In this document: positions 13,028 through 34,815 of the stretch, one piece after another
Layout: the number at the start of each line of letters is the position of its first letter
Position numbering within the stretch: position 1 is the stretch's first letter
Assembly (NCBI GenBank): GCA_013044195.1
Contig: JABEUV010000078.1
Location: 1 to 34,815, forward strand
Length of the DNA: 34,815 bases
From: Elusimicrobiota bacterium
GTDB taxonomy: Bacteria; Elusimicrobiota; Elusimicrobia; UBA1565; UBA9628
Direction of reading: 5' to 3'
The notes under the pieces: generated by a model
What the model was told of the DNA's origin: nothing
Database searches by the model: none
The model's input: the letters and a program-made list of their open reading frames with translations, nothing else
Program-made: the position numbers and the translations under genes

Positions 13028-13063
13028 TACTGGAAGCATAGCTCCAGTACGGCAATAAGTCAC
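13028..13063 (-). promoter_or_regulatory. Probable leaderless promoter with palindrome before the giant gene
   Basis: On the minus strand a TATGCT -10-like hexamer (13035-13040) ends 7 nt before the ATG at 13027; a weak -35-like GTGACT lies 17 nt further up (13058-13063). The -10 sits in the loop of a perfect 7-bp inverted repeat, TACTGGA/TCCAGTA, with arms at 13028-13034 and 13043-13049. Transcription would start at or next to the start codon. The palindrome could be an operator. Promoter activity is inferred from sequence only. Confidence 0.45.
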
Positions 13064-16845: not shown

Positions 16846-16903
16846 CGAAAATTCGACCTCGGCCTTGCGAAGGGAAAGCACTCGGCCATCCGGATGATCA
16901 ATG

Positions 16904-16928
16904 AAATCAACCACTTTGTGGTTGATTT
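16904..16928. promoter_or_regulatory. Perfect 11-bp palindrome upstream of the ATPase gene
   Basis: The arms AAATCAACCAC and GTGGTTGATTT are perfect inverted copies around TTT. The right arm covers TTGATT (16922-16927), which pairs at 18-nt spacing with TATGAT (16946-16951) as a plausible promoter for the ATPase gene. A regulator bound here would block the -35. It reads better as an operator than a terminator, because it lies in a divergent promoter gap and has no T-run. Confidence 0.55.
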
Positions 16929-16951
16929 CTGACCATGTATGGGGGTATGAT

Positions 16952-18396: not shown

Positions 18397-21300
18397 CTAC
18401 TTCAAGCCCTCGACGCCGGGGAACTGGCCGTTGGTCGTGGGACGGCCGTCGTTGAGAACCGAGGAGGAGCGCAGCTGGCCTTCCTCGACCTGGGCCTGCT
18501 GAATGTCGAGCGCCTTCTTGACGGCGGCGGCGTAGTCGGCGGCCAGGGCCGCGCCCTCGTCGCCGCCCTGGGCGGCGCGCAGGCGGACGTAGGCGTCACA
18601 GGCGGCCCAGTCCGGCGCGCCGCCGCGCGCCTTGACGAAGGCGACGAAGCGGGGGTCGGCGCGCAGCTGCTTGAAGAACGGGTCCTGCGCCAGCATGTCG
18701 CGGAAGACGCGGTAGCCGGCCACGGAGTCCATGTCCATCACCAAGGAGAAAGTCCGGTCGGCGTTGGGCAGGACGCGGCCCACATCGATGCGGCCCTCGG
18801 CCTGCAGAAGGTGGACGGAGGACATCTTGTGCGGGTCGACGATCAGCATCTCGAAGTCGGTGTAGCCGCGGAAGGCCTCCGGCACGGCGCTGCCGCGCTG
18901 GCCCTTGAAGTTCAAGTCCAGGCCGCGGCCGCCCACGCGCGTGTCGAGGATCAAGACGCGCGCCCGGCCCGTGTCGAGTGCTGCCAGGTTCATCTGCTCG
19001 GCCACGCGCGCTTCCGGAACGTTGTTGCGCAGGTACTCGGTGTCGGAGAACACCATGGAAATCTCGTCGGGCTTGAGGCCTTTGACGCGGATCAGGTAGT
19101 CGCGCACGGTCTTGAGCACGCGCGTGTCGGAGACGCTCAGGACCATCAGGCCTGACTCCTGGGAATCGGGCTGGGTCCTCAGCCAGGCGCGCGCGGCCTC
19201 GGCCTGGGCCTGGCTGACGCCGTCGCCGGCGCGCACGTCGGCCACGCGCACGACGGGCGTCTTGACGCCCTTGTAGCGCGGCGCGGACAGATACTGTTCG
19301 AGCGCGGGACGCGCGCCTTCGGGAATGTCTGCGGTATTCACGCTCACGGTCCGGCGCAGGTCCAGCAGCCACTGGCGCGCCGCGGCGGTGTCCGCGTCGG
19401 TCTTGCCGTGCACGTCGGAGACGCGCACGACGACGGAGTCCTTGCCCTTGAACTTAGGGTTGGTCAGGTAGGCGTCGATCGCGGGCCGGACGTCGGCGGG
19501 AATATCGTCGGCGGGCACCGCGCCGTCGGCGTTCACGCGCAGGACCACGCCGTCGGCGTCGCCGGTCCCGGCGCGCAGTTCGCGCAGTTGACCGAGGGCT
19601 TTCGCATAGACGCCGGCGCGAGGATCGTTGCGGGCGCCTTCGGCCTGCTTGGCGAAGTCGGCCAGCGTCAGCGTCGCCGGCCCGCTCATCGCGTCGAGCG
19701 CGGCCAGGCGCACATCCTCCGGCGCGCCCTTGACGTCGCCGAGGGTGACGGCGCCGTCGCCGGCGGTGCGGCCGTTGCGCTCAAGCCAGGCCCGGTCCGC
19801 CGCGGCCCCCTCGCCGGCGAAAGCGTCCAGACGCAGTTCCACCGGCTTGGGCAGCGCGCCGCCGGCTCGGTCCACCATGGCTTCGCGCACCTCCAGCGGC
19901 GCCCGCTTCAGGTCCGGCACCACCACCTGACCGCGCGCCGAGTCCAGGTCGGCCAGCGCGCGCCCAATGCGCGCATAGCTGTCGATGGGCCGCGCCGTCA
20001 GTTCCACGCCCACGTTCGGTGGCGGCGTGGAGCCCTGGCCCACCATCATGATGTCGTTCTTCTGGAAATGCTCGCGCAGCTTGTCTCCCGCCGTGCCCGA
20101 GAAGGAGATGAAGTTCGTCTCCTTGTCGGTGGTCAGGTCCTTGATCGTGCTGATGGACTGATGCGTGTAGGGCAAGGTCAGGTCGGTGCCGTAGGCCAGC
20201 TCCCAGTAGCGGCGCGTCTCGTTGTCCATCGACTCGAACCATTGGCCGTTGTGGACGACGTTGATGCGGCCGGTGCGGTTGTCCAGGCGGATGCCGGCCG
20301 GGTCCTCGAAGAAGCCGTCCAGCTGACGCTTGAGCTCCAAGCGCACCCAGGAGCCGCGCCCGCCCAGACCTTTCGGGTTCACGATCGAGCTGAGCAGATT
20401 CCAAAAAAGACCGTCGGCCTGGAGCCCGGGCATCGTCGGCTCTCGAAACAGCGCCTGGAGTAGCTGGGACGCCCGCAGCCGCGTCAGGCCCAGGTCCTCA
20501 AGCGGCACGTCGATGGGGCGGCCGCGCAGGACGTCCCAGAGCAGGCCGGCCGTCTTCCACGGCCCCAGACTTTTGCCGTCCAGCTTCGCTTCGAACGCCT
20601 TCTGGACCTTCTCATAGCCGAACTCCTTGGAGACCATCCGGTTGCCGGCGGCGTCGAAGACCTCCCTCCGGCCGGACTTCTCCTGACCGCGGAGCATCTC
20701 GCTCATCGCGAAGGTCTGCGCGTCGTCCTTCATTCGGCGGAAGACCGCGTACATCGGGTTCTCGTCGCCGGCGAAGGACTTGAGCAGGGCGCGGCGCTCC
20801 TCCATGAGACGGCGCGCGCGATCCTCCCAGCCGCGCTTGCCTTCGCGCACGATCGCGGCGATCTCATCGCCGGCCTGGCTCAAGCCCCGGCGAACCTCCG
20901 CGCGGGCCTTGTCGACCAGGCGCGCGCGCTCTCGCGCGCCGGGACCCTCGCGCGGCAAGGTCTCGATGCGACGCAGAAGGCCGCCCAAGTCCCCGCCTTC
21001 GGAACCGCGCCCAAGCTCGCTCTTGAGACGGGACTCCTCGGCGCGCACGGCCGAGTAGTCGGACTCCAGGGACTGCCGGCGCGCCTCCAGCTCCGCGGTC
21101 GATCCGCCGTCGCGCCGCGCGGCGACCAGAGCGTCGTCGATTTGCGCGGTACGCCGGCCGATGTCGTAGATGCGCGCCAGCGCCACGGCCCGTTCGCGCG
21201 CGACGGGCTTAAGCTCCGCGGGCAAGGCGTTTTCCAGGTCGGCGGCCTTCGCCTTCCAGTCCGCGAGGGACGCGGGCCTGCGAGCCTCGGGCCCGGCCTC

Positions 21301-24300
21301 GGCGGCGGCCACACGGTCCTGCAGGCCGCTGAGACGCCGACCCACGTCGACCGCCTGGAAGCGGTCGGTCATCGCCTTCTGGAGGCCGAGCAGGGACGCC
21401 TCGTCGCGCAAAGCCTGCGCGCGGCCGGAAGCCCCCGGCGCCGAGGAGCCCTCGGCCGCGTCGGCCTGCGCGGTCAGGCTGTCGATGCGCGCGCCCAGCT
21501 CCGCGGAGCGGACGGCGGCGTCGCTCGTCAGACGCTGAAGACCCTCTTGCCCGCCGCCCAGGTCCAGCAGGTTGCTCTCGCGCCGCAGATTGCCCTTCAA
21601 CTGGTCCAGCACGCCGCCGCGCAAGGACGCGTCGTCGGCCGGCGCGTCAAGAGAGGCCGCGACGTCGCTCAGCGCGCCGCGCGCCTGCGCCAGCGCCTGC
21701 GCGTCCAGGCCCGAAGCCGACGGCGAGGTCAGCAAGCCCTGAAGCTGAGCCGCGGCGTCGCGCACGTCGCTTTCCGCCTGGAACCGATCCAGCGGACCGT
21801 CGGCCTGAGCCAGACGGCCGGCGGCCCCGTCGAGCCGATCGAAGCCGGCCTTGACCGCCTCCGCGTCCAAGCCCGGCACTTTCGCCGCCAGCAGCTGCGC
21901 GCGGCCCGCCGCGGTCTGCGCGCGCATGCCGAGAGAAGACGCCGCGCTGTCGATGCGGCTCTGGACGCTGAGGTCCAGGGCGTCGGCGCGCGCGTAGAAC
22001 GGCGACAGCCGCGATACGCGCCCGGAGACCTGGCCGATGGTCAGCGCGGGCTGCATGGCCGCGCCGTCCATCTCGTCGCCCAGGATCCAATAGTCGCGCA
22101 ACGCGCTGCGGCCCTTGGTCTTGCCCTCGGCGGCCTTGGTCTTGAGGCTCTCGTAGGTCTCGAACGTCAGCTTCGAGCCGATCTTCTTGTAGGCGATGAA
22201 GTCCATCCGGGCCTGGGCCTCCAGGTTGGACTGCACCGTCAGGAACGCCACCTTCTTGCCCGTGGCCTGCGCGTCGGCCTCGACGAGCGGCAGAAGGCCC
22301 TCAAAAGCGACGAAGGTCTTGCCGCCGCCGGTTTTGAGCATCTGGAACACGCGCACGGAGCCCGTCGGCCGCCGCGCCACGAACGCGGTCAAAGCGCTCA
22401 TCAGCGCCTCGAACTGCTCCGGCCGCCAGCCCTTGAGCGCCGTGCCCTTCGCGTCGTGCAGGGCCCACGGCGAGGCCTCCATGTCGTCGATCGACCGGCC
22501 GATCTTCGCGCGTTCGTCCGGGGTCAGCCCTTCCGCGGACTGCAGGTCCTCGCGCAGGCCGGAGATCAGACGTCCGAAGGAGCCGTCGGCGCCCTTGCCC
22601 GCGACGGTCTCGTCCGGACGGCGGCCTTTTTTCCAATCCTGCAGTTTGGACTGAAAGCTGGTCAGCAGGGAGGACGGCGCCGGGCGCGAGCGAAACTCGG
22701 TGATCAGCGCCTGCAGGGACTCGTCGGCCAGCGCGTAGGCCTTCTCGACGCTGTTGAAGCTGTTGAAGCGCTTGTCGATGGCCGAAACGTAGTCGGCAAG
22801 CTTGGCCAGCACGTCGGCCTCCGGAGGCGTGAGCGTCCCGTCGGCCTCCCACTGCTTGACGCGGGAGCGAAGCCCTTCCAGGTAGTCCTTGTAGCCCACG
22901 CCTTCAGGCTCCTGCTTGACGCGCCATTCGGAGACTTCGTCGCGGATCTTGGCCAGTACGCCGTTGTCGCCGGAAAACGCGTCGCGCGGCTTGAGACGGC
23001 GCAGGGCCGCGTCCAGCTCGCGCGCCGGTTCGCGCGTGATCAGATTGGCTTCCAGGTAAGGCTTGAGCACCTTGTCCACGCTGGCGGCAAGACCGCGCGG
23101 CATCGCCTTGCCGATCTGTATGTCCGAGGAATACAGCGCGACCGCGACGTCCCGCTGGATCTCGGGAGTGACTCGTCCCACGCCGTCGACCATCTCTCCC
23201 GGCTTGGCCTCCAGGATGGCCTTCGCGCGCGCGGGGTCGGACAACAAGGCGCGGATGAAGTTGTTATGAGCGAGGAGACGGACCTCGTCGTTGACCTTCA
23301 AACTGCGCGCGAAAAGCTCTCCGTCCGCCATCTTCGTGATGCTTTGGAACACAAGCGGATCGGCCTTCTTGCCGCCGGCGGCCTCGAACATAGTCTTCTC
23401 GATGCCCTGGCGGCGGACCTGCTCGGTCACGGTCCACTTGCCGTTCGGCGGATCGCGAAAGAAGTGGAAGTCGAACACGCGCTGGGAGATCGGTGTCTTC
23501 GGCGTCTCAAGAAACGGCAGCTCCTTGCCCGATTCGGCGTTGGCGTACTCGTGCGTTCGACCGGCCGCGTCGTATTGGCGCATGCCCTCCGCTCCCCCCA
23601 TGAAGGGTGCGGCCTCCAGCGCCGCGTGGGCGGAGAAGGTCGGCAGGGCCAGCCAGATGGGCGCTTGCATCAACTCCTGGCCGGTCTGGTTGGCGCCCTT
23701 GATGCGCGTCTCGACGTCGGGAGAGCTTCCCCACGTCACCTGGCCGACGAAAGGCAGGCTGAGCGACGGCGCGTTGTAGGCCACCCAATGGCCCAAGCCG
23801 CTGGCGGCGTCGCTGACCAAGGCGTATTTGGCCACGTTGTCGGCCATGCTGAGCGGAAACGCCGCGATCTTGCCGGCCACGCCCTGCTCGGCCAGCCGGT
23901 CGATCAGGCCCTTGCCGGCGCCTCCCTCCACGGCCGGCCACAGGACGGAGTTGGCTTGAGTCATCGCGCCCGCCAGGGCCGAATCCTCGCCGGCCAACTT
24001 CACGGCCGTGGGCATCACCCAGGACGCCAGGCCGCCCAGGCCGCTCCACGCCGTGTCGACGACGCCGCGCGAGCCGAGCACGTCCATGGCGCCGGCCAGC
24101 CGCGTGCCGGCGAACGCCGACGAGGGCACGCCCACGTAGTTGAGCATCGGATGCCAGGATTCGTTGGCCCACCACGCGCCGCCCTTGGCGCCGGCCCAGA
24201 GAGCTTGCCCCGCGCCGGAAAGGTCGCTGGTATACACCGAGTGGCCGCCGGTCACGTCTTGATAAAAATGCTGTCCCAGCATGAAGCCGCCGGAAATTCC

Positions 24301-26430
24301 CGACGACATGGCGGTGAAAGTGGTCTGCCGGGCGGCGGCGTTGAGCGCGCGCACGCCGCTTTCGGCCAGGTAGCGCACCGCTCCGTTTTCGATGCGGCCG
24401 GTCATCGCCATGGACGTCTGCGTCTGCAAGGTGGTCAGACGAGCCGCGGTGTGCAGGGCCGCCTCGCGGGTCATGATCGAGGCGCGGGTAAGAACGCGGC
24501 GCATCACGCCCGCGTCCTCGCCCGCCGCCGTCAGGCCGGTGGCGTCCAGTCCCTTGGCCAGCCCCGTCAGTCCGCGCGCGGCCACGCCGCCGCCCAGGCC
24601 GATGGCGACACTCCACTCCACCAGGCTGCGCCCGGTGTCGATCCACTTGTTCTTCTCGAACACGGACACGATGCGGTCGCGGTTGGCGGTCAGGGAGGCC
24701 GCGATCTTGACGTCGTCGGTCACGCGCTTGGGCTGGTCGCCGAAGAGTGCCGACTGAAAGTGGGCGCTCGCCGCATCGGGGTTCATCGCGATGACCGAGC
24801 GCCGCGCGCCGGCCATGTCCCCGCCGGCGATCTGGCCCATGATGGCCTGGAACTTAGGCGTATCGGCCGCAAGCGTGTTCATGTTCGCGCGGTAGCCGCC
24901 GTCGACGCGGCCGTAGAGCCAATACGACCAATTCATGCCCGCCGCCTGGCCGCCCATTTTTTTCGCGGCCCAGGCGGCGGCCTTGTCGACGACGCCCACG
25001 TTGGTCTGGTCCTGGGTCAGCGCGGCCACGGTGGGAACCTCAACGTAAACGGAGTAGTCGGTCGAGATCGTGCCCAGCGAAGTCTGGCTGGCGGTCAGCA
25101 TGGCGTTGGCCGTGTCGAGGCTTGCGGACGGATCGGTCTTGTCGAGCAGCAGGCGCACGCGGTCCAACTGCGCGCGCACCTGCTGAAGCTGAGCGATCAT
25201 GTCCCGGCCGCGCTGTTTGTAGAGGACCTTCATCTTGACCGGAACGTTCAGCTTATCGAGAGCATCCATCAACTGCTTGGAGTCCGGCGAAGACGGGTCG
25301 AGCCGGTCCTCCTGGTTTTTGACGTAGTATTCCTGGGTCTCCAGCACCGCGCGCGTGAGTGCCACGCGCGCGACCTGCTCATCGAGCGCCAGGCTCTTGA
25401 CCGCGCCGTCGCTGACGACGGGGTTCTTGGACATGGAGCCCAGAAGGGCGGCCACGTCGCCCTTGTAGGCCGCGATGTCGTTATAGGCGTCCTTTAGGTA
25501 ATTCTTGCGTTTGAGAAAATGCTGCTCGACGATGTCGTAGACGCTGTAGGTCTTGCCGCCGCTGTCGTAAGTCTTTTTTTGGGCCTGCGCGATCAGGTCG
25601 CCTTCCAGCGTCTTGTCGGTAAACCACATGTCGTCGCGGTATTGGCCGGTCTTGCCCAGCAAGTCGGCCAACTCGATCATGCGGTCGCGGCGCAGTCCGT
25701 CCATGAGGGCGTTGTACTGGTTGTCGACGGCCGCATACGAGTAGTCGAACATCTGCCGGTTGTAGCGGCCCGTCTCCGGCACGAACGGCGCGCCGACCTG
25801 GGGCGCCTGGTTCATGGCGTGCTGCTGCTTCTGGAGCGCACGGTTGTAGACCGTGGTCTGGCCGGCGTTCATGACGTAGACCAGGTCGCCCTTCTTGTCG
25901 TAGAACTCGGCGCCGTCGGGAGTCTGGACGCGGACCATGCTCGCGGCGTTGGGCGGATCGACGACGGCCGCGCCCGACAGCGCGGCCTGGGCCAGCGCGC
26001 CGCGGCGGAACTCGTCCTCGGCGGAGGCTGCGGCGGGATCGGCGGGAGCGGGAAGGCCGGCAAGCTGTTTTTGCACCGTGCCGATCAGCTTGGACGCGGC
26101 CGCGGCACTCGTCGGCGTATACGCGCCATTGCCGCGCAGGACGTCGAGCGAGGGTTGAAGTGCCGCGGCGGCATCGGCGGGGTTGTCGCGGGGAGCCAGC
26201 GCGTCGTAGATGGCCTGGCCGATGGGCGTGAGTTGATGGCCGTTGCCCAGGTAGCTCTTGAGCACGTCGCCGTCGCCCTGATAGACGCCCCAGGACTTCA
26301 TCTGCTGGAGCGCCTGGGCCGGGCTGACGCTCGGCGCGCCGCCGTCGGCGAACGCGGCCGCAGGCCAGGAGCCGGTCGCAAGCGCCGCCGCGACCGCGGC
26401 GGCGAGCAATCGACGCACGAGGTTGTTCAT
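18397..26430 (-). CDS. Giant protein with signal peptide and SecA-like ATPase core
   Basis: The product has 2677 aa. Residues 1-28 form a clear signal peptide (MNNLVRRLLAAAVAAALATG, ending AAAFA). Residues 29-560 are mainly helical, 570-930 are Gly/Ala-rich and mildly hydrophobic, and 960-1340 are helical. The ATPase core then follows SecA order: Walker A KTGGGKT (1366-1372; SecA has MKTGEGKT), DEMD (1452-1455; SecA DEVD), a FSGTAG motif (2110-2115; SecA MTGTA), VGGRGLDL (2499-2506; SecA MAGRGTDI) and QAEGRIDVGR (2543-2552; SecA QLRGRSGRQG), followed by RTFSLVMDMD like SecA RFYLSLEDD. A long coiled-coil insertion separates DEMD from SGTA, and about 380 residues including repeats separate SGTA from motif V. 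SecA is a cytoplasmic motor of about 800-900 aa. An exported version is very unusual, and its energy source outside the membrane is unknown. It is last in a co-oriented envelope cluster and has its own promoter. Confidence 0.9.
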   Translation of the reverse strand: MNNLVRRLLAAAVAAALATGSWPAAAFADGGAPSVSPAQALQQMKSWGVYQGDGDVLKSYLGNGHQLTPIGQAIYDALAPRDNPADAAAALQPSLDVLRGNGAYTPTSAAAASKLIGTVQKQLAGLPAPADPAAASAEDEFRRGALAQAALSGAAVVDPPNAASMVRVQTPDGAEFYDKKGDLVYVMNAGQTTVYNRALQKQQHAMNQAPQVGAPFVPETGRYNRQMFDYSYAAVDNQYNALMDGLRRDRMIELADLLGKTGQYRDDMWFTDKTLEGDLIAQAQKKTYDSGGKTYSVYDIVEQHFLKRKNYLKDAYNDIAAYKGDVAALLGSMSKNPVVSDGAVKSLALDEQVARVALTRAVLETQEYYVKNQEDRLDPSSPDSKQLMDALDKLNVPVKMKVLYKQRGRDMIAQLQQVRAQLDRVRLLLDKTDPSASLDTANAMLTASQTSLGTISTDYSVYVEVPTVAALTQDQTNVGVVDKAAAWAAKKMGGQAAGMNWSYWLYGRVDGGYRANMNTLAADTPKFQAIMGQIAGGDMAGARRSVIAMNPDAASAHFQSALFGDQPKRVTDDVKIAASLTANRDRIVSVFEKNKWIDTGRSLVEWSVAIGLGGGVAARGLTGLAKGLDATGLTAAGEDAGVMRRVLTRASIMTREAALHTAARLTTLQTQTSMAMTGRIENGAVRYLAESGVRALNAAARQTTFTAMSSGISGGFMLGQHFYQDVTGGHSVYTSDLSGAGQALWAGAKGGAWWANESWHPMLNYVGVPSSAFAGTRLAGAMDVLGSRGVVDTAWSGLGGLASWVMPTAVKLAGEDSALAGAMTQANSVLWPAVEGGAGKGLIDRLAEQGVAGKIAAFPLSMADNVAKYALVSDAASGLGHWVAYNAPSLSLPFVGQVTWGSSPDVETRIKGANQTGQELMQAPIWLALPTFSAHAALEAAPFMGGAEGMRQYDAAGRTHEYANAESGKELPFLETPKTPISQRVFDFHFFRDPPNGKWTVTEQVRRQGIEKTMFEAAGGKKADPLVFQSITKMADGELFARSLKVNDEVRLLAHNNFIRALLSDPARAKAILEAKPGEMVDGVGRVTPEIQRDVAVALYSSDIQIGKAMPRGLAASVDKVLKPYLEANLITREPARELDAALRRLKPRDAFSGDNGVLAKIRDEVSEWRVKQEPEGVGYKDYLEGLRSRVKQWEADGTLTPPEADVLAKLADYVSAIDKRFNSFNSVEKAYALADESLQALITEFRSRPAPSSLLTSFQSKLQDWKKGRRPDETVAGKGADGSFGRLISGLREDLQSAEGLTPDERAKIGRSIDDMEASPWALHDAKGTALKGWRPEQFEALMSALTAFVARRPTGSVRVFQMLKTGGGKTFVAFEGLLPLVEADAQATGKKVAFLTVQSNLEAQARMDFIAYKKIGSKLTFETYESLKTKAAEGKTKGRSALRDYWILGDEMDGAAMQPALTIGQVSGRVSRLSPFYARADALDLSVQSRIDSAASSLGMRAQTAAGRAQLLAAKVPGLDAEAVKAGFDRLDGAAGRLAQADGPLDRFQAESDVRDAAAQLQGLLTSPSASGLDAQALAQARGALSDVAASLDAPADDASLRGGVLDQLKGNLRRESNLLDLGGGQEGLQRLTSDAAVRSAELGARIDSLTAQADAAEGSSAPGASGRAQALRDEASLLGLQKAMTDRFQAVDVGRRLSGLQDRVAAAEAGPEARRPASLADWKAKAADLENALPAELKPVARERAVALARIYDIGRRTAQIDDALVAARRDGGSTAELEARRQSLESDYSAVRAEESRLKSELGRGSEGGDLGGLLRRIETLPREGPGARERARLVDKARAEVRRGLSQAGDEIAAIVREGKRGWEDRARRLMEERRALLKSFAGDENPMYAVFRRMKDDAQTFAMSEMLRGQEKSGRREVFDAAGNRMVSKEFGYEKVQKAFEAKLDGKSLGPWKTAGLLWDVLRGRPIDVPLEDLGLTRLRASQLLQALFREPTMPGLQADGLFWNLLSSIVNPKGLGGRGSWVRLELKRQLDGFFEDPAGIRLDNRTGRINVVHNGQWFESMDNETRRYWELAYGTDLTLPYTHQSISTIKDLTTDKETNFISFSGTAGDKLREHFQKNDIMMVGQGSTPPPNVGVELTARPIDSYARIGRALADLDSARGQVVVPDLKRAPLEVREAMVDRAGGALPKPVELRLDAFAGEGAAADRAWLERNGRTAGDGAVTLGDVKGAPEDVRLAALDAMSGPATLTLADFAKQAEGARNDPRAGVYAKALGQLRELRAGTGDADGVVLRVNADGAVPADDIPADVRPAIDAYLTNPKFKGKDSVVVRVSDVHGKTDADTAAARQWLLDLRRTVSVNTADIPEGARPALEQYLSAPRYKGVKTPVVRVADVRAGDGVSQAQAEAARAWLRTQPDSQESGLMVLSVSDTRVLKTVRDYLIRVKGLKPDEISMVFSDTEYLRNNVPEARVAEQMNLAALDTGRARVLILDTRVGGRGLDLNFKGQRGSAVPEAFRGYTDFEMLIVDPHKMSSVHLLQAEGRIDVGRVLPNADRTFSLVMDMDSVAGYRVFRDMLAQDPFFKQLRADPRFVAFVKARGGAPDWAACDAYVRLRAAQGGDEGAALAADYAAAVKKALDIQQAQVEEGQLRSSSVLNDGRPTTNGQFPGVEGLK

Positions 26431-26458: not shown

Positions 26459-26517
26459 AGTGTAGCAGAGGAGGCCCAGCCTGTCAGGGCCTAAAGTACC
26501 GACACTATATAGGCCCT
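26459..26517 (-). promoter_or_regulatory. Promoter and upstream box of the SecA-like giant gene
   Basis: On the minus strand CTGACA (26482-26487), 17 nt, then TACACT (26459-26464) make a sigma70-like promoter about 28 nt before the ATG. The box CTTTAGGCCC (26487-26496) abuts the -35. It is half of a perfect 8-bp inverted repeat, AGGGCCTA (26486-26493) and TAGGCCCT (26510-26517), enclosing GTCGGTA. A related box lies before the next gene upstream. Confidence 0.6.
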
Positions 26518-26540: not shown

Positions 26541-29204
26541 TTAAAGGTGGCCCTGATTGCAGACCGCTTGAGCTTCGGCCAGGGTCATGCCGCGCCAGAT
26601 GACGGGGCCGGCGCAGTTCTTCTTCGCGTTCTTGATATTGCTGTTGTCGGGCGAGGGCACCGCGTCGCGGTAGACCACGTAGGCGCCCTTCGTCGCGTCG
26701 CCGAAGAACACGATCTTCGAGTTGTTGATGGGCACGGGTGCGGCGGCCTGCAGGCCTTGAAGCTGTACGCCGCCGTCCTTCATCCATTGCGCTATATCGC
26801 CCTGAAGCGGTATGTTCGCCGAACGCACGAGATGCGTCGTCTTTGAATCGGCGTCCTCCCGCTGCATGCGAAAGACGACCGACCAAGATCCGTCGTCGAC
26901 CTCATAGAGAGCGGCGTTAGGATTTTTCGCGTCGTCGGCCTGCTTGAAGCCGGGCTCGAAAGAGTGATCGCCGGACAGAGCGGAGACGTCCGCCATCTCA
27001 AACGCGGTGCCCGTGCCCGTACCGCTCGACGTCGCATCACGGGGAACCGTCTTTTCGACCGGCCAGATCTCAAAAAAAGGCTTGCTCTTGTCGTCGGGCA
27101 TCACGCGCAAAGTGCCCGACGTCTGCTTGCCGTCCAGCGAACCGCTGACCATATAACCGCCGTCTCCAAGCTGGGCCTCGATCTTCTTGAAATTCGCGGC
27201 GATGGCCTGGGCCGCCGCCTGGTATGCCACCGCCTTGCCCTGGGCGTCGGTGATGCCTTGGGAGTAAGTCGCGACGATGTCGATGGCGACGTCGATATCG
27301 GGAGCGCCGCTGATCACGTTGTTGCCCGTGTCGTATTGAGCGGGAGCGAAGGTCTTGCCGTCGTTGTATTGCGCCAGGATGGCGCTGATCGGGTAATAAG
27401 AAACGGTCACGTCCTGACCCTTGGCCTGCTCGAAGGCGATCTGATCCTCGAAGCCGCGCGCCCCGGTCAAGCCCGGCAGAACGTTGGGGCCGAACACCAA
27501 CGGCGAATCCGCCGGCGCCTGTCCGTGCGTCTTGACCAGGCCCTTGGCGAACACCAGGTAGAACGTATTCGCCTCGGTCTTGCTTTTCATGAGATGAACG
27601 CGCGCCAGGTCCGCCGCGTCGAAATCCGCATTCCCGTCGCGGCCCGTGTAGCTGTCGGTGAAGTCGCCGCACGCGGCCGCGCCGCATTGGCCGGAGGCAG
27701 TCGAAGGACCGCCGTTGCCGCCTCCGGCCTTCCCGCCCGTTAGAGCGGCCGCGTTCATATGGGCGGTGTCGGTGCTGCTGCTTGGCGGCGCGGGAGGAGG
27801 ATCTCCGGGGCCGGGCTTGACCTCCCACTGGCCGCTGGCTTGGTTGAATTGCAGGTGATAGGGGTCCTGCGCGCCGGTCGCGGAGTTGTAGAAGGTGCCC
27901 ATGTCCGGCTTCTTGCCCGAGGCGGGCACGGACAGCCCATCGGCGTCCACCTTCTCCACGCCGTCGGCGATGGCCGCCGGGCGCAGCAGGAGCGGGTTGC
28001 CGCCGTTGCCGCGGGCGTCGATCAGGCTCTTGTCGAAGAACAGATACGAACCCGTCGCCCCTCCTTGGCCCAGAACGTAGTAGCTCTTGCCGTCGATGCT
28101 GACCTGGCCGCCCTGTGTGGCGACCTGATTGGCGCGCAACGTCGCCAACTCACTGGGCGAGAACTTGGCCGCGCTGCCTTGCCCGTCCTGCGTCTTCGGC
28201 CTTGCCAGCGTGATGGTCCCGTCGGCGCCCACGGTCAGTTCGTAGTTGCGCGTGATCGGCGCGCCGCTGTCCTGACCGCCGTAGACCGAGATCGTGGTCT
28301 TGCCGGTGTTGATGGGAACGAAGGCCGGCGCGTAGATGTGCGCCGGGTCGGTGATGTCCACCACGCCGATCTTGCTGACCAACTGGCCGTTGGCGTCCTT
28401 GACGGTGTACTCCTTGATCGACAACTTGCGATAGCCGTCCTGCTTGTCGCGGTAGACGTTGGCCACCACGGCGCCGTCCACGTAGAGATTCTGGAAACTG
28501 CTGGCGGGCGCGTTCTGCAGAACGTTTCCACCCCCATTGCCGTTGCCGTATTGGGGCGACATGGGCGCCGGGTTGGTACCCTGATCGTTGGCGGCGATGC
28601 TGTTCTCGATCTGCCGCTTGTGCCCGCAATCCAGCAGAACCTTCTGCGCGTCCAATCCCGCGGCCTGCAAAAAATTGCCCAGCGACGCGGCCAGGCCGGC
28701 TTGCTGAATCAGCCCCACCTGAGAACCGGGCGGCGTCGAGAGACGGTCCGCCAGGCACGCCGGCAAATCGTATTGACCGGGCGTAAACAGCTTGGACGCC
28801 GTCGGATCATTCTTGATCCAGTCCGGCGCGGGGTCCTTGGACGCCAGCACGAAATAAAGCGTGGCCGCGGAAAGGGGCGAAGCCTTCACCCATTTGCCCA
28901 CCTCGGCCGCGATGAGCGTGGCGTCCTCCGCGCTGGCGCGGACGTCGTCAGCGGCGTATTTCTTCTTCGGATCAAGCACCAGGGCCTGCACCGCTTGGTC
29001 CACGTCCTTTTTGGCCTGATCGCCCTTCTTGATCAGCGCCTCCAGCGCATGCGGCGCGTCCGCCGTCTTGGCGGAAGGCGCCGGCTTGGACGCCGGGATG
29101 GGCGCTTTCGTCGCGGCCGCGTCGGCGAAAACCGGCCTCGGCGACAAGCATGCCGCCCAGACCGCCGCCCACACCGCCGCCATGACGGGACTATAGGGTT
29201 TCAT
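26541..29204 (-). CDS. Secreted protein of unknown function (887 aa)
   Basis: The start at ATG 29204 is supported by CTGGAG 6 nt upstream. Residues 1-28 form a signal peptide ending PVFADA, followed by an Ala/Pro/Lys linker and a helical region to about 215. A Gly/Asn-rich hinge (NGNGGGN) follows. The rest is mainly beta-rich with recurring segments such as VVDITDP and YELTVGADGTITL. Near residue 535, GRDGNADFDAADLA resembles a calcium-binding dockerin or EF-hand loop. A Pro/Ser-rich linker near 470-480 separates the two halves. Cysteines are few (for example CGAAACGDF) and the C-terminus ends CNQGHL. No family is recognised. It lies between the anchored proteins and the SecA-like giant, with a 110-bp gap to the latter and its own box-bearing promoter, so a shared envelope role is likely but inferred. 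Confidence 0.85.
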   Translation of the reverse strand: MKPYSPVMAAVWAAVWAACLSPRPVFADAAATKAPIPASKPAPSAKTADAPHALEALIKKGDQAKKDVDQAVQALVLDPKKKYAADDVRASAEDATLIAAEVGKWVKASPLSAATLYFVLASKDPAPDWIKNDPTASKLFTPGQYDLPACLADRLSTPPGSQVGLIQQAGLAASLGNFLQAAGLDAQKVLLDCGHKRQIENSIAANDQGTNPAPMSPQYGNGNGGGNVLQNAPASSFQNLYVDGAVVANVYRDKQDGYRKLSIKEYTVKDANGQLVSKIGVVDITDPAHIYAPAFVPINTGKTTISVYGGQDSGAPITRNYELTVGADGTITLARPKTQDGQGSAAKFSPSELATLRANQVATQGGQVSIDGKSYYVLGQGGATGSYLFFDKSLIDARGNGGNPLLLRPAAIADGVEKVDADGLSVPASGKKPDMGTFYNSATGAQDPYHLQFNQASGQWEVKPGPGDPPPAPPSSSTDTAHMNAAALTGGKAGGGNGGPSTASGQCGAAACGDFTDSYTGRDGNADFDAADLARVHLMKSKTEANTFYLVFAKGLVKTHGQAPADSPLVFGPNVLPGLTGARGFEDQIAFEQAKGQDVTVSYYPISAILAQYNDGKTFAPAQYDTGNNVISGAPDIDVAIDIVATYSQGITDAQGKAVAYQAAAQAIAANFKKIEAQLGDGGYMVSGSLDGKQTSGTLRVMPDDKSKPFFEIWPVEKTVPRDATSSGTGTGTAFEMADVSALSGDHSFEPGFKQADDAKNPNAALYEVDDGSWSVVFRMQREDADSKTTHLVRSANIPLQGDIAQWMKDGGVQLQGLQAAAPVPINNSKIVFFGDATKGAYVVYRDAVPSPDNSNIKNAKKNCAGPVIWRGMTLAEAQAVCNQGHL

Positions 29205-29300: not shown

Positions 29301-30870
29301 CTATGGTTTCGCTTTTACCGCCGCGCCCTGAACGGCATTAAGCACGCCCAACTGCGCTGATCGCATGTCGGAAATGGCTTTCATTAGGTCTTTAGCCGCT
29401 GTGTCATTAAACTTAGTTGGGGCAGGCTGTTGTGAAGGATTGTTGATTGGCGATGCCTTTGACTGGCTGCAGTCGTAACCGATATTCTGGCATGCCTGGT
29501 TGATCAGCTTTGTAACGGCCAATTTATCTGTATCAACCTGCGAGGCAAGCTGAGCCGCATTCTGTCCAGAGGCCACTACCGGGAAAGACACTTGGGCCGC
29601 AGGTACCGGTTTGCTTGGATCAATCACCGGCAAAGGAGATCCCTTGTTTTTCTCGTTGTAATCTGAAATCGCCGTCTGAAGATTGGCCGCATATGTATTC
29701 GCATTGCCGACTTTCAATATGGTCGGGTCGGTATTCTTACTAAACGGATCGTTGGAGTCCTGCCCCCCAGTCGAATCGGCATTCACGGCGTCGCTCAACT
29801 GCGTCAAGACACTTTGGAGCTGATTCGCGCTCGTTTGCAAGGTCGTCTGCACCGTCGTGACCTGTTTCGGCAAGCCCGAACTATTTCCCGGATCGACTTC
29901 CGCAGCAAGTTTCGTGTACTGGCTGTCCACACCCGAACCGGTCACCGGCTTTACATGACCCAGCATCGTGGTGACCTCTTGCAAGTATCCCTGCGCGCTT
30001 GTTTGAGCAGGGTTCGGCATGACACCCAGCTCTGCCGTCGCCGCGTTATATTCTTTCAGCGCGGTCGGCAAGAGCGTCTGCACCTTATCAGCCGTAAGAT
30101 TCGCGACACCTGGAGAAGCCAATAGGGGGTTTACGGCCGAATTAATATGACCAAAAACATCCTGGAGCATACTCTTAACATTTGCGCCACCATGCACGCT
30201 CGCAGCTGAGCATGACAGCCCGTTTGTTGCAGGGAAATTGGGCATCGAACTCCCATCAAGTTCATTCTTCCCTTGGGCAAGCAAATTTAAATCCGCAGCA
30301 ATTTGCTGCAGATAGGGTTGCGTCGTCTTGATATCTAAGGTGCCTCCAGCCAAACCTCCCGCAGCCCTGCAGTCCGAGGTGATTTGGCCGCCGATCTGAT
30401 CTACACCCGACTGAGGAGTGGAGGTGGCGTTGCCGTTGCCGCTTCCAGCGCTCCCGGAACAAATCGCGTATCCATAGCCCTGGTCGCACCCAGCGGAATA
30501 AGGACCATTTTTAATGAGTTGCTGTCCCGAACCGTTCGAACATGCAGCTAATATTGAAGTGCCGTCGGCTAACGTCTTACAGACCATCCAAACAGGAGAA
30601 ACTCCACCGGAGGTAGTTGCCGGCTGGCCCGCAGTCTGGCTCGTATTAGTTCCGGACGGAGCGCACGTGTTCCATCCAAGAGACGTGCCTCCCCAATTCT
30701 GGACGGGGAATCCGGCGGTGCCTCCCGCGCCAGCACAAGTGAGGTTGTTCATTCCAGCGCCGATGCAAGTCATGTTGTACTTGGAAAACATCGGAATACT
30801 ACAACCGACCACGTTCCCTAGTCCTGTGCCGATCGTTGAGGCGAATGTGCCGGCAATGCTCTCCATCGCC
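29301..30870. other. Low-GC segment within the 873-aa protein gene
   Basis: Base composition drops sharply inside a continuous reading frame and returns to high GC in the next gene. The right edge is roughly 30850-30900, where the helical region ends; the left edge is near the stop codon. I saw no flanking repeats or insertion sequence ends. It looks like domain-level transfer or a variable surface region. Confidence 0.65.
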
Positions 30871-31922
30871 GTGTTCTCAAGCTTGTACATTTCCAGCGTG
30901 CGGTCGCCCGCCTCCTGCTCTTTCCAGTACAGCTCCAGCTGCTTCTGGAGGTTCTGCTTCATCATCTCGTAGGCCAAAGACTCGCCGCCGCTTTTGGAAT
31001 CCTTGGGGCCGCCGCCGTTGCCGGGCTTGTCGGCGGGACCGCCGCCGCCGGGGCCGGAGCCGCCGCCGGCAGATTGGCCGCCGCCGCCCGGGATGGATTC
31101 ATTGGCGGCCGCGTTCAGGTTTCCTTGGGCGGAGCCGGCGGCACGGTCGAACATGCCTCCGGCTTTGTCGGCCGCGGCCTTGAGCGCGGTCTGGGCGTCC
31201 GCGCCGGTGGTCTGGCCGCGCGGGCCCACGCTGGCGATGTTGCCGCCGCCCTTGACGCCGGCCATGTTGTTGGCCACGTTGCCGTGACTGCCCAGGCCCA
31301 GGCCCTGAGTGGACACGCCGGGGCCGGCGGTGGCGCTGGAGGTGCCGCTGGCCACGCCCAGGCCGCGCAGACTGGAGCCGGAAAGAGAGATCTTGGGCAC
31401 CGGCAGAAGCGATTTCTTGACGGCGGCGCTGGCCGCGTGAGAGGCGGCGCCGGCCAACGCGTCGCGCACGTCCTGGTCGGAGCGGCCGGACCCGCTTACC
31501 GGGGGCGCGACCGAGGCCGAGGAATTGGTGGGCGGCTGGGAGGACGAGCCCGGGCCCATGATCAAAGATGAAGGGTCGCGCACGTTGAGCGGGGTGATCA
31601 CATCGGAGCCGCCCACGGGGCTGCCCACCGCGGTGCCCGAGCCGTCGCTGGTGCGGTCCTCCGCGCCGAAGATGCCTGGGCCGGCACCCTTGCCACTGCC
31701 GAAGCCGGGGCTGAGGCTTGCGTCGCCGTTGTCCGGGCTCATCATGAAGTGCTCGGCCAGCGGGGCCATGAACAAGGTGCCCAGTCCCGCCAAAATGAAG
31801 GCCAGATCCTTCTTGTTGAACTGCTTCATCCGGTCGAGAAAGGTAATTCCCGCACCCAGGCCGCGCACCTTCACCTGCGGCTTTTGGGAGTCCTTGAGAG
31901 TCGGGATCTTGGGCTGGTCCAT
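29301..31922 (-). CDS. Membrane-anchored Gly-rich protein with compositionally foreign Cys-rich C-terminal half
   Basis: The 873-aa product starts at ATG 31922 with AGGAGA 8 nt upstream. There is a short cytoplasmic N-terminus, then one transmembrane helix (DLAFILAGLGTLFMAPLA, about 39-56), then a long Gly/Ser/Ala-rich stretch to about 320 and a helical region (MMKQNLQKQLELYWKEQE). From about residue 350 the protein becomes Ser/Thr/Asn/Gln-rich with many cysteines (for example CSIPMF, NMTCIG, NLTCAG, GYDCSQSK), suggesting disulfides outside the membrane. The matching DNA (29301 to about 30870) is far less GC-rich than the rest: 27 of 60 bases at 29401-29460 against 51 of 60 at 31021-31080. 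That suggests a replaced or acquired C-terminal module. The start lies 24 nt after the stop of the gene before it, so the two are probably co-transcribed. No known family is recognised. Confidence 0.85.
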   Translation of the reverse strand: MDQPKIPTLKDSQKPQVKVRGLGAGITFLDRMKQFNKKDLAFILAGLGTLFMAPLAEHFMMSPDNGDASLSPGFGSGKGAGPGIFGAEDRTSDGSGTAVGSPVGGSDVITPLNVRDPSSLIMGPGSSSQPPTNSSASVAPPVSGSGRSDQDVRDALAGAASHAASAAVKKSLLPVPKISLSGSSLRGLGVASGTSSATAGPGVSTQGLGLGSHGNVANNMAGVKGGGNIASVGPRGQTTGADAQTALKAAADKAGGMFDRAAGSAQGNLNAAANESIPGGGGQSAGGGSGPGGGGPADKPGNGGGPKDSKSGGESLAYEMMKQNLQKQLELYWKEQEAGDRTLEMYKLENTAMESIAGTFASTIGTGLGNVVGCSIPMFSKYNMTCIGAGMNNLTCAGAGGTAGFPVQNWGGTSLGWNTCAPSGTNTSQTAGQPATTSGGVSPVWMVCKTLADGTSILAACSNGSGQQLIKNGPYSAGCDQGYGYAICSGSAGSGNGNATSTPQSGVDQIGGQITSDCRAAGGLAGGTLDIKTTQPYLQQIAADLNLLAQGKNELDGSSMPNFPATNGLSCSAASVHGGANVKSMLQDVFGHINSAVNPLLASPGVANLTADKVQTLLPTALKEYNAATAELGVMPNPAQTSAQGYLQEVTTMLGHVKPVTGSGVDSQYTKLAAEVDPGNSSGLPKQVTTVQTTLQTSANQLQSVLTQLSDAVNADSTGGQDSNDPFSKNTDPTILKVGNANTYAANLQTAISDYNEKNKGSPLPVIDPSKPVPAAQVSFPVVASGQNAAQLASQVDTDKLAVTKLINQACQNIGYDCSQSKASPINNPSQQPAPTKFNDTAAKDLMKAISDMRSAQLGVLNAVQGAAVKAKP

Positions 31923-31946: not shown

Positions 31947-33419
31947 CTAGTGCGACGGGGCGCTCTGCACTCCCTGCCCGTCGGCGTTGCCGCTCTGGTC
32001 CTGAGACACGTTCACCTTCTGAGCGGAGATGCCGTTGCCGATCTGGTTGCACTCGTCGTTGCAAGTGGACGCCGAATCCGCGGCGGTCAGAGGACAAGCC
32101 CGCGAGTGCTGGCAACGCACGGACATGTATTGACCGCAGGTCGCGCGCATCTGGCTTGCCAACGCGTTGCAGTAATTGAGCTTGCTCTTGCTGCAGCCGC
32201 CGCTGCCGCAGCTGGCGGCGGCGAACTGCTGGGACTGGTCCTGCATTTGCGCGTTGAGATTATCCTCCTGCGGGCCGTACTGCGCGTCAAGCGCCTTGCA
32301 CGTCTGCGCGTCCTGGTTCATCTGCTGAGCGTTCTGTAGGTAGGTCTGCCCCAGCCCCGAACTGGGCAGGTTTGGCGAGCCGCCGGGATCCATCGGCGTA
32401 CCCGTGACCAATCCATTGGTCGCGGGATTGTTGACCGCGTTGCCGTCGTAGATCGCGCCGGTGTTGGCCGCGGCGAACTCGCTCGGGCAACCGGCGCCGC
32501 AGTTCGGCGTGACGGAAATCTGCGCCTGGGCGTTGCCCTGAGCCAACTGCGTGTACGCGCGGCCCGCGCCCAGCGAGGAGGCTCCCGCCATGCCTTGGGA
32601 CTCGTGCGCCTGCAATTCCCGCGCGAAGCGCCCGGAGATGCGTCCGCCCACGCCGCTGACGGCCGCGCCGCCGGGGCTTGACGCCGTCGGCAGATTCGCC
32701 AGGCCCGCCTGCGCCGCGCTGCCCGAAACCGCTCCGACCGAGCCGCTGAAGAATCCCCGGCCCGCGTACGCGCCGCCGGACAGCGCGTCGGCGCCCGTAC
32801 CGCCCGCGCCGCCCATCAAGCCGCTGAAAAATCCGCCCGCGAACGCGGCCTTGACGAAGCCCTCGCGCCGGTCGCCGACGTCGCCCGGGCCCAAGGTCAA
32901 CGCGTCGCCGTCCTTAGCCGCCTGCGCCGGATCGACGATTCCTTTGAAAGGACCCGTGCCGCCCGCCGCGGAACCGGAGTTGGATCCGGCTCCAGTTCCG
33001 GAGCGGTCGCCGCCCTCGCCCAAGTCGGCGCGGCTGCCTTTGACGTATGCCAGCGAACCCGCGCCGTAGTCGGACTTTCCGTCGCCGGAAGCGGCGAAGA
33101 ACGGCCCCCAGCCCGCGCGCTTGCCGCCCGCGCGAGCCGATTCGAAGGCCGCCAACAAATCGCCGAACCGGGCGTTGCCCGACGCCAAGCCCCAGCGTCG
33201 CACGTCCACGCCCATGCGCGAGGCCAGCCAGGCGATCCCGGCTTCCATGCGCGAGCCTCCCGGGATATCGCCCCAGAACGCCGACGGCGACACAAAAACG
33301 GTCGACGCTCCGATCAGGAGCAGCAAGAGCAACGCCAGAACCTTGTGTTCCCGCAGGAACAGCAACAGAGCCGCCAGCAGGCTCTTCTTCTTGTTCCGCT
33401 CCAGGAATTTATTGGTCAT
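31947..33419 (-). CDS. Membrane-anchored Gly/Ala-rich protein with Cys-rich C-terminus (490 aa)
   Basis: I chose ATG 33419. A TTG at 33470 in the same frame lies inside an excellent -35 element and cannot be translated from that promoter. The N-terminus is basic (NKFLERNKKK) with a transmembrane helix at about residues 13-43 (KVLALLLLLLIGASTVFV). A Gly/Ala/Ser-rich middle follows with small segments such as GGRISGRFARELQ. The last 170 residues contain many cysteines: CGAGC, CKALD, CGSGGCSK, CNALAS, CGQYM, CQHSRAC, CNDECN. The build matches its neighbours on both sides: anchor, Gly-rich stalk, distal cysteines. An envelope structural role is likely. No named family is recognised. Confidence 0.82.
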   Translation of the reverse strand: MTNKFLERNKKKSLLAALLLFLREHKVLALLLLLLIGASTVFVSPSAFWGDIPGGSRMEAGIAWLASRMGVDVRRWGLASGNARFGDLLAAFESARAGGKRAGWGPFFAASGDGKSDYGAGSLAYVKGSRADLGEGGDRSGTGAGSNSGSAAGGTGPFKGIVDPAQAAKDGDALTLGPGDVGDRREGFVKAAFAGGFFSGLMGGAGGTGADALSGGAYAGRGFFSGSVGAVSGSAAQAGLANLPTASSPGGAAVSGVGGRISGRFARELQAHESQGMAGASSLGAGRAYTQLAQGNAQAQISVTPNCGAGCPSEFAAANTGAIYDGNAVNNPATNGLVTGTPMDPGGSPNLPSSGLGQTYLQNAQQMNQDAQTCKALDAQYGPQEDNLNAQMQDQSQQFAAASCGSGGCSKSKLNYCNALASQMRATCGQYMSVRCQHSRACPLTAADSASTCNDECNQIGNGISAQKVNVSQDQSGNADGQGVQSAPSH

Positions 33420-33441
33420 GGCTTGTTTGCGCGACTTGTCC

Positions 33442-33470
33442 AGTGTAGCGGCCGACGCCGGCTTTGTCAA
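33442..33470 (-). promoter_or_regulatory. Strong sigma70-type promoter TTGACA-17-TACACT
   Basis: On the minus strand a perfect TTGACA (33465-33470) is 17 nt from TACACT (33442-33447). Transcription would start near 33435, leaving about 15 nt before ATG 33419. No clear Shine-Dalgarno sequence is seen in that leader. The TACACT -10 is the same as at the two other promoters of this cluster. Confidence 0.7.
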
Positions 33471-33505: not shown

Positions 33506-34815
33506 CTAATTCTTCGCCCCTCCGCTGCCGGCCACGGTCCCGCCGTTGGTCGTGGCTCCGCCCGTGTTGCTCAGCGTCGGACTCCCCGTTTCGGTCGTGC
33601 TTTGCTGTTTGAGGGCGGCGCCGTTGCTGCCGCCCGGATCTCCCGCCGAGGTGGTGCCGCTGACCTGTTGCTGCACGGTCGTGGTCTCCTGAGGCGTGCA
33701 GTTGCTCTGCCCCTGCAAGGACTGGGCGGTGCATTGGTGCACGATCTGACCCTGATACGGGCCGACCTGGGACGCGACCTGGTCGCCCATCTGGTTGGCC
33801 ATATTGGCCATCTGCTTGGCCATCTGCTCCATCATGTAGCCCATACCCACCAGCATGGCGCCGATAGCGATGAGGACCGCCCCCCACGGCAAACATCTGG
33901 AACCGATGCCGATCAGCACAATGCCGATCACAATCATCTCCATGCCTTGCTTCTGCATCTGGGCGGCCTGCTGAGCCATCTGCTGAATCTGGTTCATGGA
34001 GTTTTGCAGGCCCGGATCGGTGATGGTACCGGGAGGTGTGGGCGGCGCGCCGGGCATCGTGGTGTCCGGCGCGCCGGACCCCGACGACGCCCCGCTGGTC
34101 GGACCGCTGCCGATGCCGGCGCCGCCGATGGTGTTGAGGTCGCCGCCCATCGCGTTCTGCTGGTCGAACGCGCCGTTGGCCGCCGACGCCGCGCCCTCCG
34201 CCGTCGCGGCGCCCGCGCCCATCGTAGACATGCCGCGCGCCATCCTGAGCTGGCCGATGGCCTGGCTTGAGCGCGCGCGCTGAACCTGCATACCGGCAAT
34301 CGAGCCGCGCGGCGACTTCGCCGCCATCGAGCCCAGGTTCCCCTTGACTCCCGGCTTGCCGCCCATGCCCGAAAGCTGGGACAGTCCCGCGTTGAATTTT
34401 GGCGCGTAGCCGCTGTTGCCGCCCGCGAAGATATTCTTGCCGCCGAAGTCGCCGCCCAGGCTCGACGACAGCTTCGCCCCGCTCAAGTTGTGCGCAAGCA
34501 CGTCCTGACGCACGTAGGGCTGAGAGTCGGCCGGGTTCGGCGCCGGCTTGTCGTCCGCCTTCGGCGCAACCTTGCCGTCGGCCTTCGCGCCCGCGGCCGC
34601 GTCCTTCGGCGCGGCCGGAGCCTTGGCCGCGCCGAAGGCCAGCTCGCCTTTGCCGTTGACGCCCATCATGTCGCCGTCGCCGCTGCGCACATGAAGCGAC
34701 GAGGATATCCCGCCCAGGTCCGGCCGTCCGATGCCGCCCGCGCCCGCATTCGCGCCGCCGTGCAGCAAGGAGTACGCAAGCGCCCCCGCCCCCATCGTCA
34801 TCAACAGTGCCGCCG
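33506..34815 (-). CDS. Gly-rich membrane protein with C-terminal transmembrane hairpin (N-terminus beyond window)
   Basis: The frame is open to the right edge. The hydrophobic stretch ALLMTMGAGALAYSLL is at the very edge, so the true start is probably outside the window and this is its N-terminal helix. The Ala/Lys/Pro- and Gly-rich region that follows includes GQLRMARGMSTMGAGAATAE. Near residues 285-325 (counted from 34804) two closely spaced transmembrane helices (MEMIVIGIVLIGIG, then WGAVLIAIGAMLVGMGYMM) are flanked by Met/Gln-rich amphipathic helices. The tail has a Cys pair (CTAQSLQGQSNC) and is Ser/Thr/Gly-rich. No family is recognised. It is first in the visible co-oriented envelope cluster, 86 nt before the next gene. 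Confidence 0.75.
   Translation of the reverse strand, partial: AALLMTMGAGALAYSLLHGGANAGAGGIGRPDLGGISSSLHVRSGDGDMMGVNGKGELAFGAAKAPAAPKDAAAGAKADGKVAPKADDKPAPNPADSQPYVRQDVLAHNLSGAKLSSSLGGDFGGKNIFAGGNSGYAPKFNAGLSQLSGMGGKPGVKGNLGSMAAKSPRGSIAGMQVQRARSSQAIGQLRMARGMSTMGAGAATAEGAASAANGAFDQQNAMGGDLNTIGGAGIGSGPTSGASSGSGAPDTTMPGAPPTPPGTITDPGLQNSMNQIQQMAQQAAQMQKQGMEMIVIGIVLIGIGSRCLPWGAVLIAIGAMLVGMGYMMEQMAKQMANMANQMGDQVASQVGPYQGQIVHQCTAQSLQGQSNCTPQETTTVQQQVSGTTSAGDPGGSNGAALKQQSTTETGSPTLSNTGGATTNGGTVAGSGGAKN

What the first reader, a model, noticed from the sequence alone, without database searches (positions are those of the whole stretch)
18397..26430. SecA-type motor core in a protein with a Sec signal peptide
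All main SecA/SF2 landmarks occur in order (KTGGGKT, DEMD, SGTA, GRGLD, QAEGRIDVGR) but within a 2677-aa protein carrying an N-terminal signal peptide. That places a translocase-like ATPase on the outer face of the membrane, where ATP is normally absent. Either the leader is an uncleaved anchor with unexpected topology, or the fold has been reused for a new job.
Basis: partly seen in the sequence, partly recalled or inferred. Interest (0 to 1): 0.85.

Follow-up and report, generated by a model that had tools for sequence, protein, structure and literature searches.

The report
Exported giant protein with SecA-like motor
A family of giant bacterial proteins (2,400-6,000 residues) carries an intact ATP-burning motor related to the SecA protein pump, yet its members begin with an export signal and the motor half is almost free of cysteine, so the motor probably works outside the cell that makes it, perhaps inside a cell it touches.

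Summary
All named motifs are there, in order, conserved in a family found in 20 of 20 sampled relatives and 45 of 295 genomes sampled across the phylum.

Profile comparison shows a real SecA relation: compact distant members align with SecA over 432 columns, motif I to VI (pairwise E 3.7e-8, probability 95%; controls far below). It is not SecA: no SecA_DEAD match, almost no chain after NBD2, and the genome's normal SecA lies elsewhere.

Members with an intact N-terminus carry Sec-type leaders; a conserved promoter-like element fixes the start codon; family motors hold 7 Cys in 33,903 residues against about 0.7% in cytosolic SecA and helicases of related genomes. Catalytic motifs are intact in 33 of 33.

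The gene ends a conserved locus with a secreted partner, TadE/TadG-like proteins, an FtsH-like protease and, in some genomes, Tad core genes 38-51 kb away.

Best reading: a secreted SecA-derived ATPase of a Tad-linked surface system, probably acting where another cell supplies ATP (inference). Main rival: a membrane-anchored protein whose motor stays cytoplasmic. Structure prediction failed.

The parts
18400..26430 (-). Giant protein P0001, 2677 aa: signal peptide + SecA-related motor
26459..26487 (-). Promoter-like CTGACA-17-TACACT upstream of the ATG, conserved in 7 genomes
26347..26430 (-). Sec-type signal peptide, residues 1-28 (AFA|D)
   Evidence: rule-based scan on window and homologues
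24613..26346 (-). N-terminal part, residues 29-606; in homologues holds Cys, often in even number
24556..24612 (-). Hydrophobic segment, residues 607-625: candidate membrane segment (KD 1.22 here, up to 2.5 in homologues)
22429..24555 (-). Conserved middle part, residues 626-1334, Gly/Ala-rich up to ~960; no known domain
21991..22428 (-). NBD1 first half, residues 1335-1480: Walker A KTGGGKT 1366-1372, DEMD 1452-1455
20314..21990 (-). Helical insert between motifs II and III, residues 1481-2039, absent in compact relatives
20026..20313 (-). PPXD-end-like stretch and motif III SGTA (2111), residues 2040-2135
19159..20025 (-). Variable insert with degenerate repeats, residues 2136-2424
18691..19158 (-). 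NBD2, residues 2425-2580: SVSDTR 2432, GRGLD 2501, QAEGRIDVGR 2543
26541..29204 (-). Gene D, 887 aa, signal-peptide protein; conserved partner upstream of the motor gene
29301..31922 (-). Gene C, 873 aa, N-terminal membrane segment; conserved at 8 loci including this one
31947..33470 (-). Gene B, 507 aa, membrane-anchored, Cys-containing
33506..34804 (-). Gene A, 432 aa or more, membrane-anchored, reaches the contig end

Best explanation
SHOWN: this is one member of a family of giant proteins that join a Sec-type leader, a long N-terminal part and a SecA-related SF2 motor (NBD1, a PPXD-end-like stretch, NBD2) with complete ATPase motifs; the gene is the last of a conserved locus with a secreted partner D, membrane-anchored proteins, an FtsH-like protease, TadE/TadG-like proteins and, in several genomes, Tad core genes. 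WELL SUPPORTED: the whole chain, motor included, is exported through an oxidising compartment. INFERRED: after Sec export and signal cleavage the protein reaches the surface, perhaps with D and the Tad-type machinery; the N-terminal part engages a target cell, the hydrophobic 600-960 region enters its membrane, and the cysteine-free motor runs on that cell's ATP, pulling a polypeptide or other polymer much as SecA does.
For: SecA relation: hhalign probability 95%, pairwise E 3.7e-8, 432 columns; Mfd-containing cluster score 45 (motifs V-VI only), second control cluster 16, shuffled SecA maximum 22. Motifs intact in 33/33. Leaders on nearly all intact members; start fixed by a conserved promoter-like element. 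Cys 7/33,903 in family motors versus 77/11,764 in canonical SecA motors and 150/21,278 in SF2 helicases (per-protein Mann-Whitney p 2e-14); no Cys after the hydrophobic segment in L042-L046 and L119, whose N parts hold 2-6. Family K/(K+R) in the motor 0.48 versus 0.28 in cytosolic SF2. Locus: D, TadE and FtsH-like, RcpC, secretin, T2SSE, T2SSF in G213; RcpC on the same contig and strand 38-51 kb away in G181, G010, G203, G168, G104. Leader-bearing true SecA paralogues L067/L068 have 0 and 1 mature Cys. Tad complexes and giant ORFs are tied to attachment/predation in Omnitrophota (PMC10066038).
Against: No ATP source outside the cytoplasm is shown, and delivery into another cell is inference. 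Some homologues have a segment hydrophobic enough for a stop-transfer helix, which would put the motor inside. In the window protein itself the motor's K/R make-up looks cytosolic. The Cys counts are not phylogenetically independent. RcpC is near-universal in the phylum (238/295) and not linked in every genome, so the tie to Tad is circumstantial. No model confirmed the fold.
Confidence: 0.45

Rival explanations
1. Type I membrane protein with a cytoplasmic motor: the leader is cleaved, residues 29-606 lie outside, the 607-625 segment stops transfer, and the motor works on ordinary cytoplasmic ATP, for instance driving assembly or secretion of the neighbouring surface proteins.
For: A hydrophobic segment at this position is among the most hydrophobic stretches of most homologues and reaches KD 2.5 in L044/L045. 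Cys, often in even number, lie only before it in many homologues. It removes the ATP problem. K/R make-up of the window motor is cytosol-like.
Against: The segment is weak in the window protein (KD 1.22, with an Arg inside) and in its closest relatives. The part after it has 14 Cys in 46,728 residues, against about 0.7% in cytosolic proteins of related genomes. Family-wide K/(K+R) and N/Q/S/T content of the motor are closer to the exported part than to cytosolic helicases.
Confidence: 0.25
2. The motor is exported and stays in the periplasm or on the surface of the producer, using ATP released or exported by the same cell, or using nucleotide only as a switch.
For: Same export evidence. Some relatives have ATP/ADP-translocase-family (TLC) matches.
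Against: No TLC match in the window's own genome and only weak, patchy ones in relatives. Full hydrolysis motifs are kept in 33/33, which a mere switch would not need. No known periplasmic ATP pool (general knowledge).
Confidence: 0.15
3. A surface or structural protein in which the motor fold is a relic and no ATP is used.
For: Giant surface proteins are common in such phyla (PMC11573180, PMC10066038); large inserts split the motor.
Against: All catalytic motifs are kept in 33/33 across very divergent members, and the motor blocks are the best conserved parts of the protein.
Confidence: 0.08

Closest known systems
SecA (preprotein translocase ATPase; Pfam SecA_DEAD PF07517)
   Same: Order and register of motif I, motif II, end of PPXD, motif III, motifs V and VI in one 432-column profile alignment of compact relatives
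   Different: No SecA_DEAD match; almost no chain after NBD2; inserts of about 560 and 290 aa; signal peptide; no Cys in the motor; the genome's true SecA is a separate gene
Other SF2 helicases/translocases (ResIII, DEAD, Mfd-like)
   Same: Sub-threshold to weak ResIII matches to NBD1 in 12 of 14 members
   Different: Profile scores lower than to SecA, and confined to motifs V-VI for the Mfd-containing cluster
Tad (type IVc pilus) loci
   Same: TadE/TadG-like proteins in the locus and, in some genomes, RcpC, secretin, CpaE/CpaF-like and TadB/C-like genes
   Different: Described Tad loci carry no FtsH-like protease, no C/D-type partners and no SecA-like giant protein (general knowledge, not tested)
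Giant ORFs of Omnitrophota and similar phyla (PMC10066038, PMC11573180)
   Same: Very large, mostly domain-poor proteins in genomes with Tad genes
   Different: The Omnitrophota paper does not mention SecA, helicase or signal peptide (text search); adhesion and polysaccharide roles are proposed there

Membership tests
SecA | SecA_DEAD (PF07517) match over the curated cut-off | tested here: not met
   None by hmmscan; the own-genome search finds only the separate canonical SecA
SecA | NBD1 - PPXD - NBD2 order with motifs I-VI | tested here: met
   hhalign of compact relatives, 432 columns, pairwise E 3.7e-8; in the window protein the order holds with large inserts and only the PPXD end is recognisable
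SecA | Helical scaffold, wing and C-terminal domains after NBD2 | tested here: not met
   Only about 97 residues follow NBD2; the alignment stops at NBD2
SecA | Cytoplasmic protein without signal peptide | tested here: not met
   Leaders across the family
SecA | Binds SecYEG and moves preproteins | not testable with these tools
   Needs biochemistry
SF2 motor proteins | Walker A and B, SGT, RG and Q..GR motifs | tested here: met
   33/33 motor regions for I, II, V, VI; motif III in the alignments; ResIII/DEAD matches
SF2 motor proteins | Two RecA-like domains in the structure | tested here: inconclusive
   AlphaFold2 pLDDT 44.7 and 46.7; Foldseek hits P-loop folds only at E above 0.01
Sec-exported proteins | Basic n-region, hydrophobic core, AXA-type cleavage site | tested here: met
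   Rule-based scan of window and homologues; no SignalP available
Tad locus component | Encoded with Tad core genes | tested here: inconclusive
   Full core upstream in G213; RcpC 38-51 kb away on the same strand in G181, G010, G203, G168, G104; on other contigs in G014, G131 and others

The most novel reading that the evidence does not exclude
A bacterial lineage exports a working SecA-derived translocase motor that enters another cell and, powered by that cell's ATP, pulls polymers across its membrane: an extracellular or delivered translocation engine with no known counterpart.
Probability: 0.25. Interest if true: 0.95.

Novelty: new variant of a known kind. Interest (0 to 1): 0.8.

Why it matters
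SecA-type motors are known only on the ATP-containing side of a membrane. An exported relative with intact catalytic motifs, conserved through an order and beyond, would mean either that ATP-driven motors operate outside the producing cell or that such motors are delivered into other cells. Both can be tested. It would also give a first likely function to some of the giant proteins that fill the genomes of these poorly known phyla.

Tried and rejected
Sequence and profile searches of the PDB gave no significant SecA or helicase relative. A first hhalign with shallow alignments caught only the Walker A region; adding class-level relatives resolved it. No relatives in viral contigs or plasmids; no anti-phage defence match. 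Tat export was considered and dropped: no consistent twin-arginine motif in homologues. Presence/absence co-occurrence with Tad cannot be tested, since RcpC is near-universal in the phylum. An ATP/ADP translocase as a general ATP supply is not supported: absent from the own genome. Literature searches found no description of this family. Charge composition was tried as a location test; it is ambiguous for the window protein.

Full report
WHAT IS THERE. The ORF at 18397-26430 is real but lies on the minus strand; the plus-strand reading of these coordinates contains stops. It encodes 2677 residues. The nearest named records are metagenome contigs titled only 'bacterium' (L003, L004), so the phylum is not established here; Elusimicrobiota is a guess of mine from genome habit.

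A CONSERVED FAMILY. The motor half matches in 20 of 20 relatives from three families and seven genera, mostly within single ORFs of about 2,400-3,300 aa where the contig is long enough, and by profile in 45 of 295 genomes sampled across the phylum, concentrated in the same order, with divergent members elsewhere in the class. No relatives were found in viral contigs or plasmids.

IS IT SecA? By one-sequence HMM search only weak SF2 signals appear: ResIII E 0.0036 for the window protein, ResIII in 12 of 14 members at E up to 0.1. SecA_DEAD does not match; the window's genome has one canonical SecA on another contig, and so do most relatives. With class-level relatives that lack the big inserts, hhalign aligns the family with SecA of the related genomes over 432 columns, from Walker A through the PPXD end and motif III to motif VI, with probability 95% and pairwise E 3.7e-8. 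The same alignment scores 45 against a cluster of Mfd-size helicases (motifs V-VI only) and 16 against a second SF2 cluster; the condensed full-family alignment scores 57.7 against SecA and at most 22 against column-shuffled SecA. These E-values are for a single pair, not a database search, and the control set is small. The stretch before motif III (TGR...W...Q...F...SGT) aligns with the SecA segment at the same place. The family lacks the C-terminal SecA domains. I therefore call it SecA-related, not SecA.

ATPase MOTIFS. GK[TS], DExD, RG and Q..GR are kept in 33 of 33 motor regions, although identity to the window falls to 27% even within the first alignment.

EXPORT. Nearly all members with an intact 5' end carry a leader with a basic n-region, hydrophobic core and AXA-like site; L101 is ambiguous and truncated ORFs (for example L035, L037, L039, L047, L102, L112, L116, L117) cannot be judged. 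A promoter-like CTGACA-17-TACACT lies 49-57 nt before the ATG in seven genomes, so the start is sound. Cysteine gives an independent test: 7 in 33,903 residues of family motor, against 77 in 11,764 for canonical SecA motors and 150 in 21,278 for SF2 helicases from related genomes (per-protein Mann-Whitney p 2e-14). The sequences are related, so the p-values overstate independence, but the contrast is about thirty-fold. Before the hydrophobic segment Cys occur at 0.37%, often in even number; after it at 0.03%. Two SecA paralogues in order-mates with full SecA_DEAD matches also carry leaders, and their mature parts hold 0 and 1 Cys.

TOPOLOGY CAVEAT. After the leader, the best candidate membrane segment is at residues 607-625 (KD 1.22). 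At about the same place most homologues have one of their most hydrophobic stretches, and in L044/L045 it reaches KD 2.5. If it is a stop-transfer helix the motor is cytoplasmic and the paradox vanishes. Charge composition of the window motor is also cytosol-like, although the family as a whole is not. Cys exclusion is the main reason I prefer export of the motor.

NEIGHBOURHOOD. A homologue of the secreted partner D (887 aa here) lies upstream of the motor gene at 19 loci including the window, usually next to it; in G006, G213 and G014 one or more predicted ORFs intervene. Gene C is found at 8 loci. Further upstream, in G181, G006, G014, G018 and G213, come TadE- and/or TadG-like proteins, and in four of these an FtsH-like AAA+/M41 protease. 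In G213 the Tad core precedes these: RcpC 1.8e-15, secretin 6e-39, T2SSE 1.8e-63, T2SSF 7.7e-17. RcpC is on the same contig and strand 38-51 kb from the motor in G181, G010, G203, G168 and G104, but it is on other contigs in several genomes and near-universal in the phylum. In the window only genes A-D are visible before the contig ends.

HOW IT MIGHT WORK. Steps shown: gene, family, SecA-related motor, intact motifs, leader, locus. Step well supported: export. Steps inferred: surface placement with D and the pilus-type machinery; membrane entry by the hydrophobic 600-960 region; ATP from a contacted cell. Omnitrophota work links Tad complexes and giant ORFs to attachment and predation (PMC10066038), and Elusimicrobiota and Omnitrophota are among the bacteria richest in huge proteins (PMC11573180); these are leads by analogy only.

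LIMITS. Structure prediction failed for lack of alignment depth, topology was judged by hydropathy alone, no SignalP was available, and no function was tested.

Noticed in passing
L067 (G013:C25) and L068 (G016:C33): Second, fully SecA_DEAD-positive SecA paralogues with signal-peptide-like leaders and almost Cys-free mature parts, beside a normal SecA in the same genomes.
   Followed up: partly
L100:7352-19999: A class-level family member joins leader, SecA-related motor, an M50-peptidase-like match and ClpB-type AAA+ domains in one ORF of about 5,000 aa.
   Followed up: partly
window 2-13063, minus strand: A second giant ORF (over 4,340 aa, runs off the contig) with a signal-peptide-like leader and only 2 Cys; no Pfam match.
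   Followed up: partly
window 13142-14038, minus strand; also near the motor or giant genes in G010, G018, G213, G267: A gene beginning MGRPKRIQ(F/Y).GACY (transposase-like, from memory) recurs close to giant genes in several genomes.
   Followed up: no
window 16901-18196, plus strand: AAA_14/DUF4143 ATPase gene convergent with the motor gene; similar-looking ATPase genes lie near the motor in G131, G213 and G113.
   Followed up: no
downstream of the motor gene in G181, G131, G215, G267: A TrkA-type potassium channel gene recurs shortly after the motor gene.
   Followed up: no
window 19159-20025, minus strand (residues 2136-2424): Degenerate repeats (VVLRV / VVVRVSDV / PVVRVADV) in the insert before NBD2; not detected by the DNA tandem repeat finder.
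   Followed up: no
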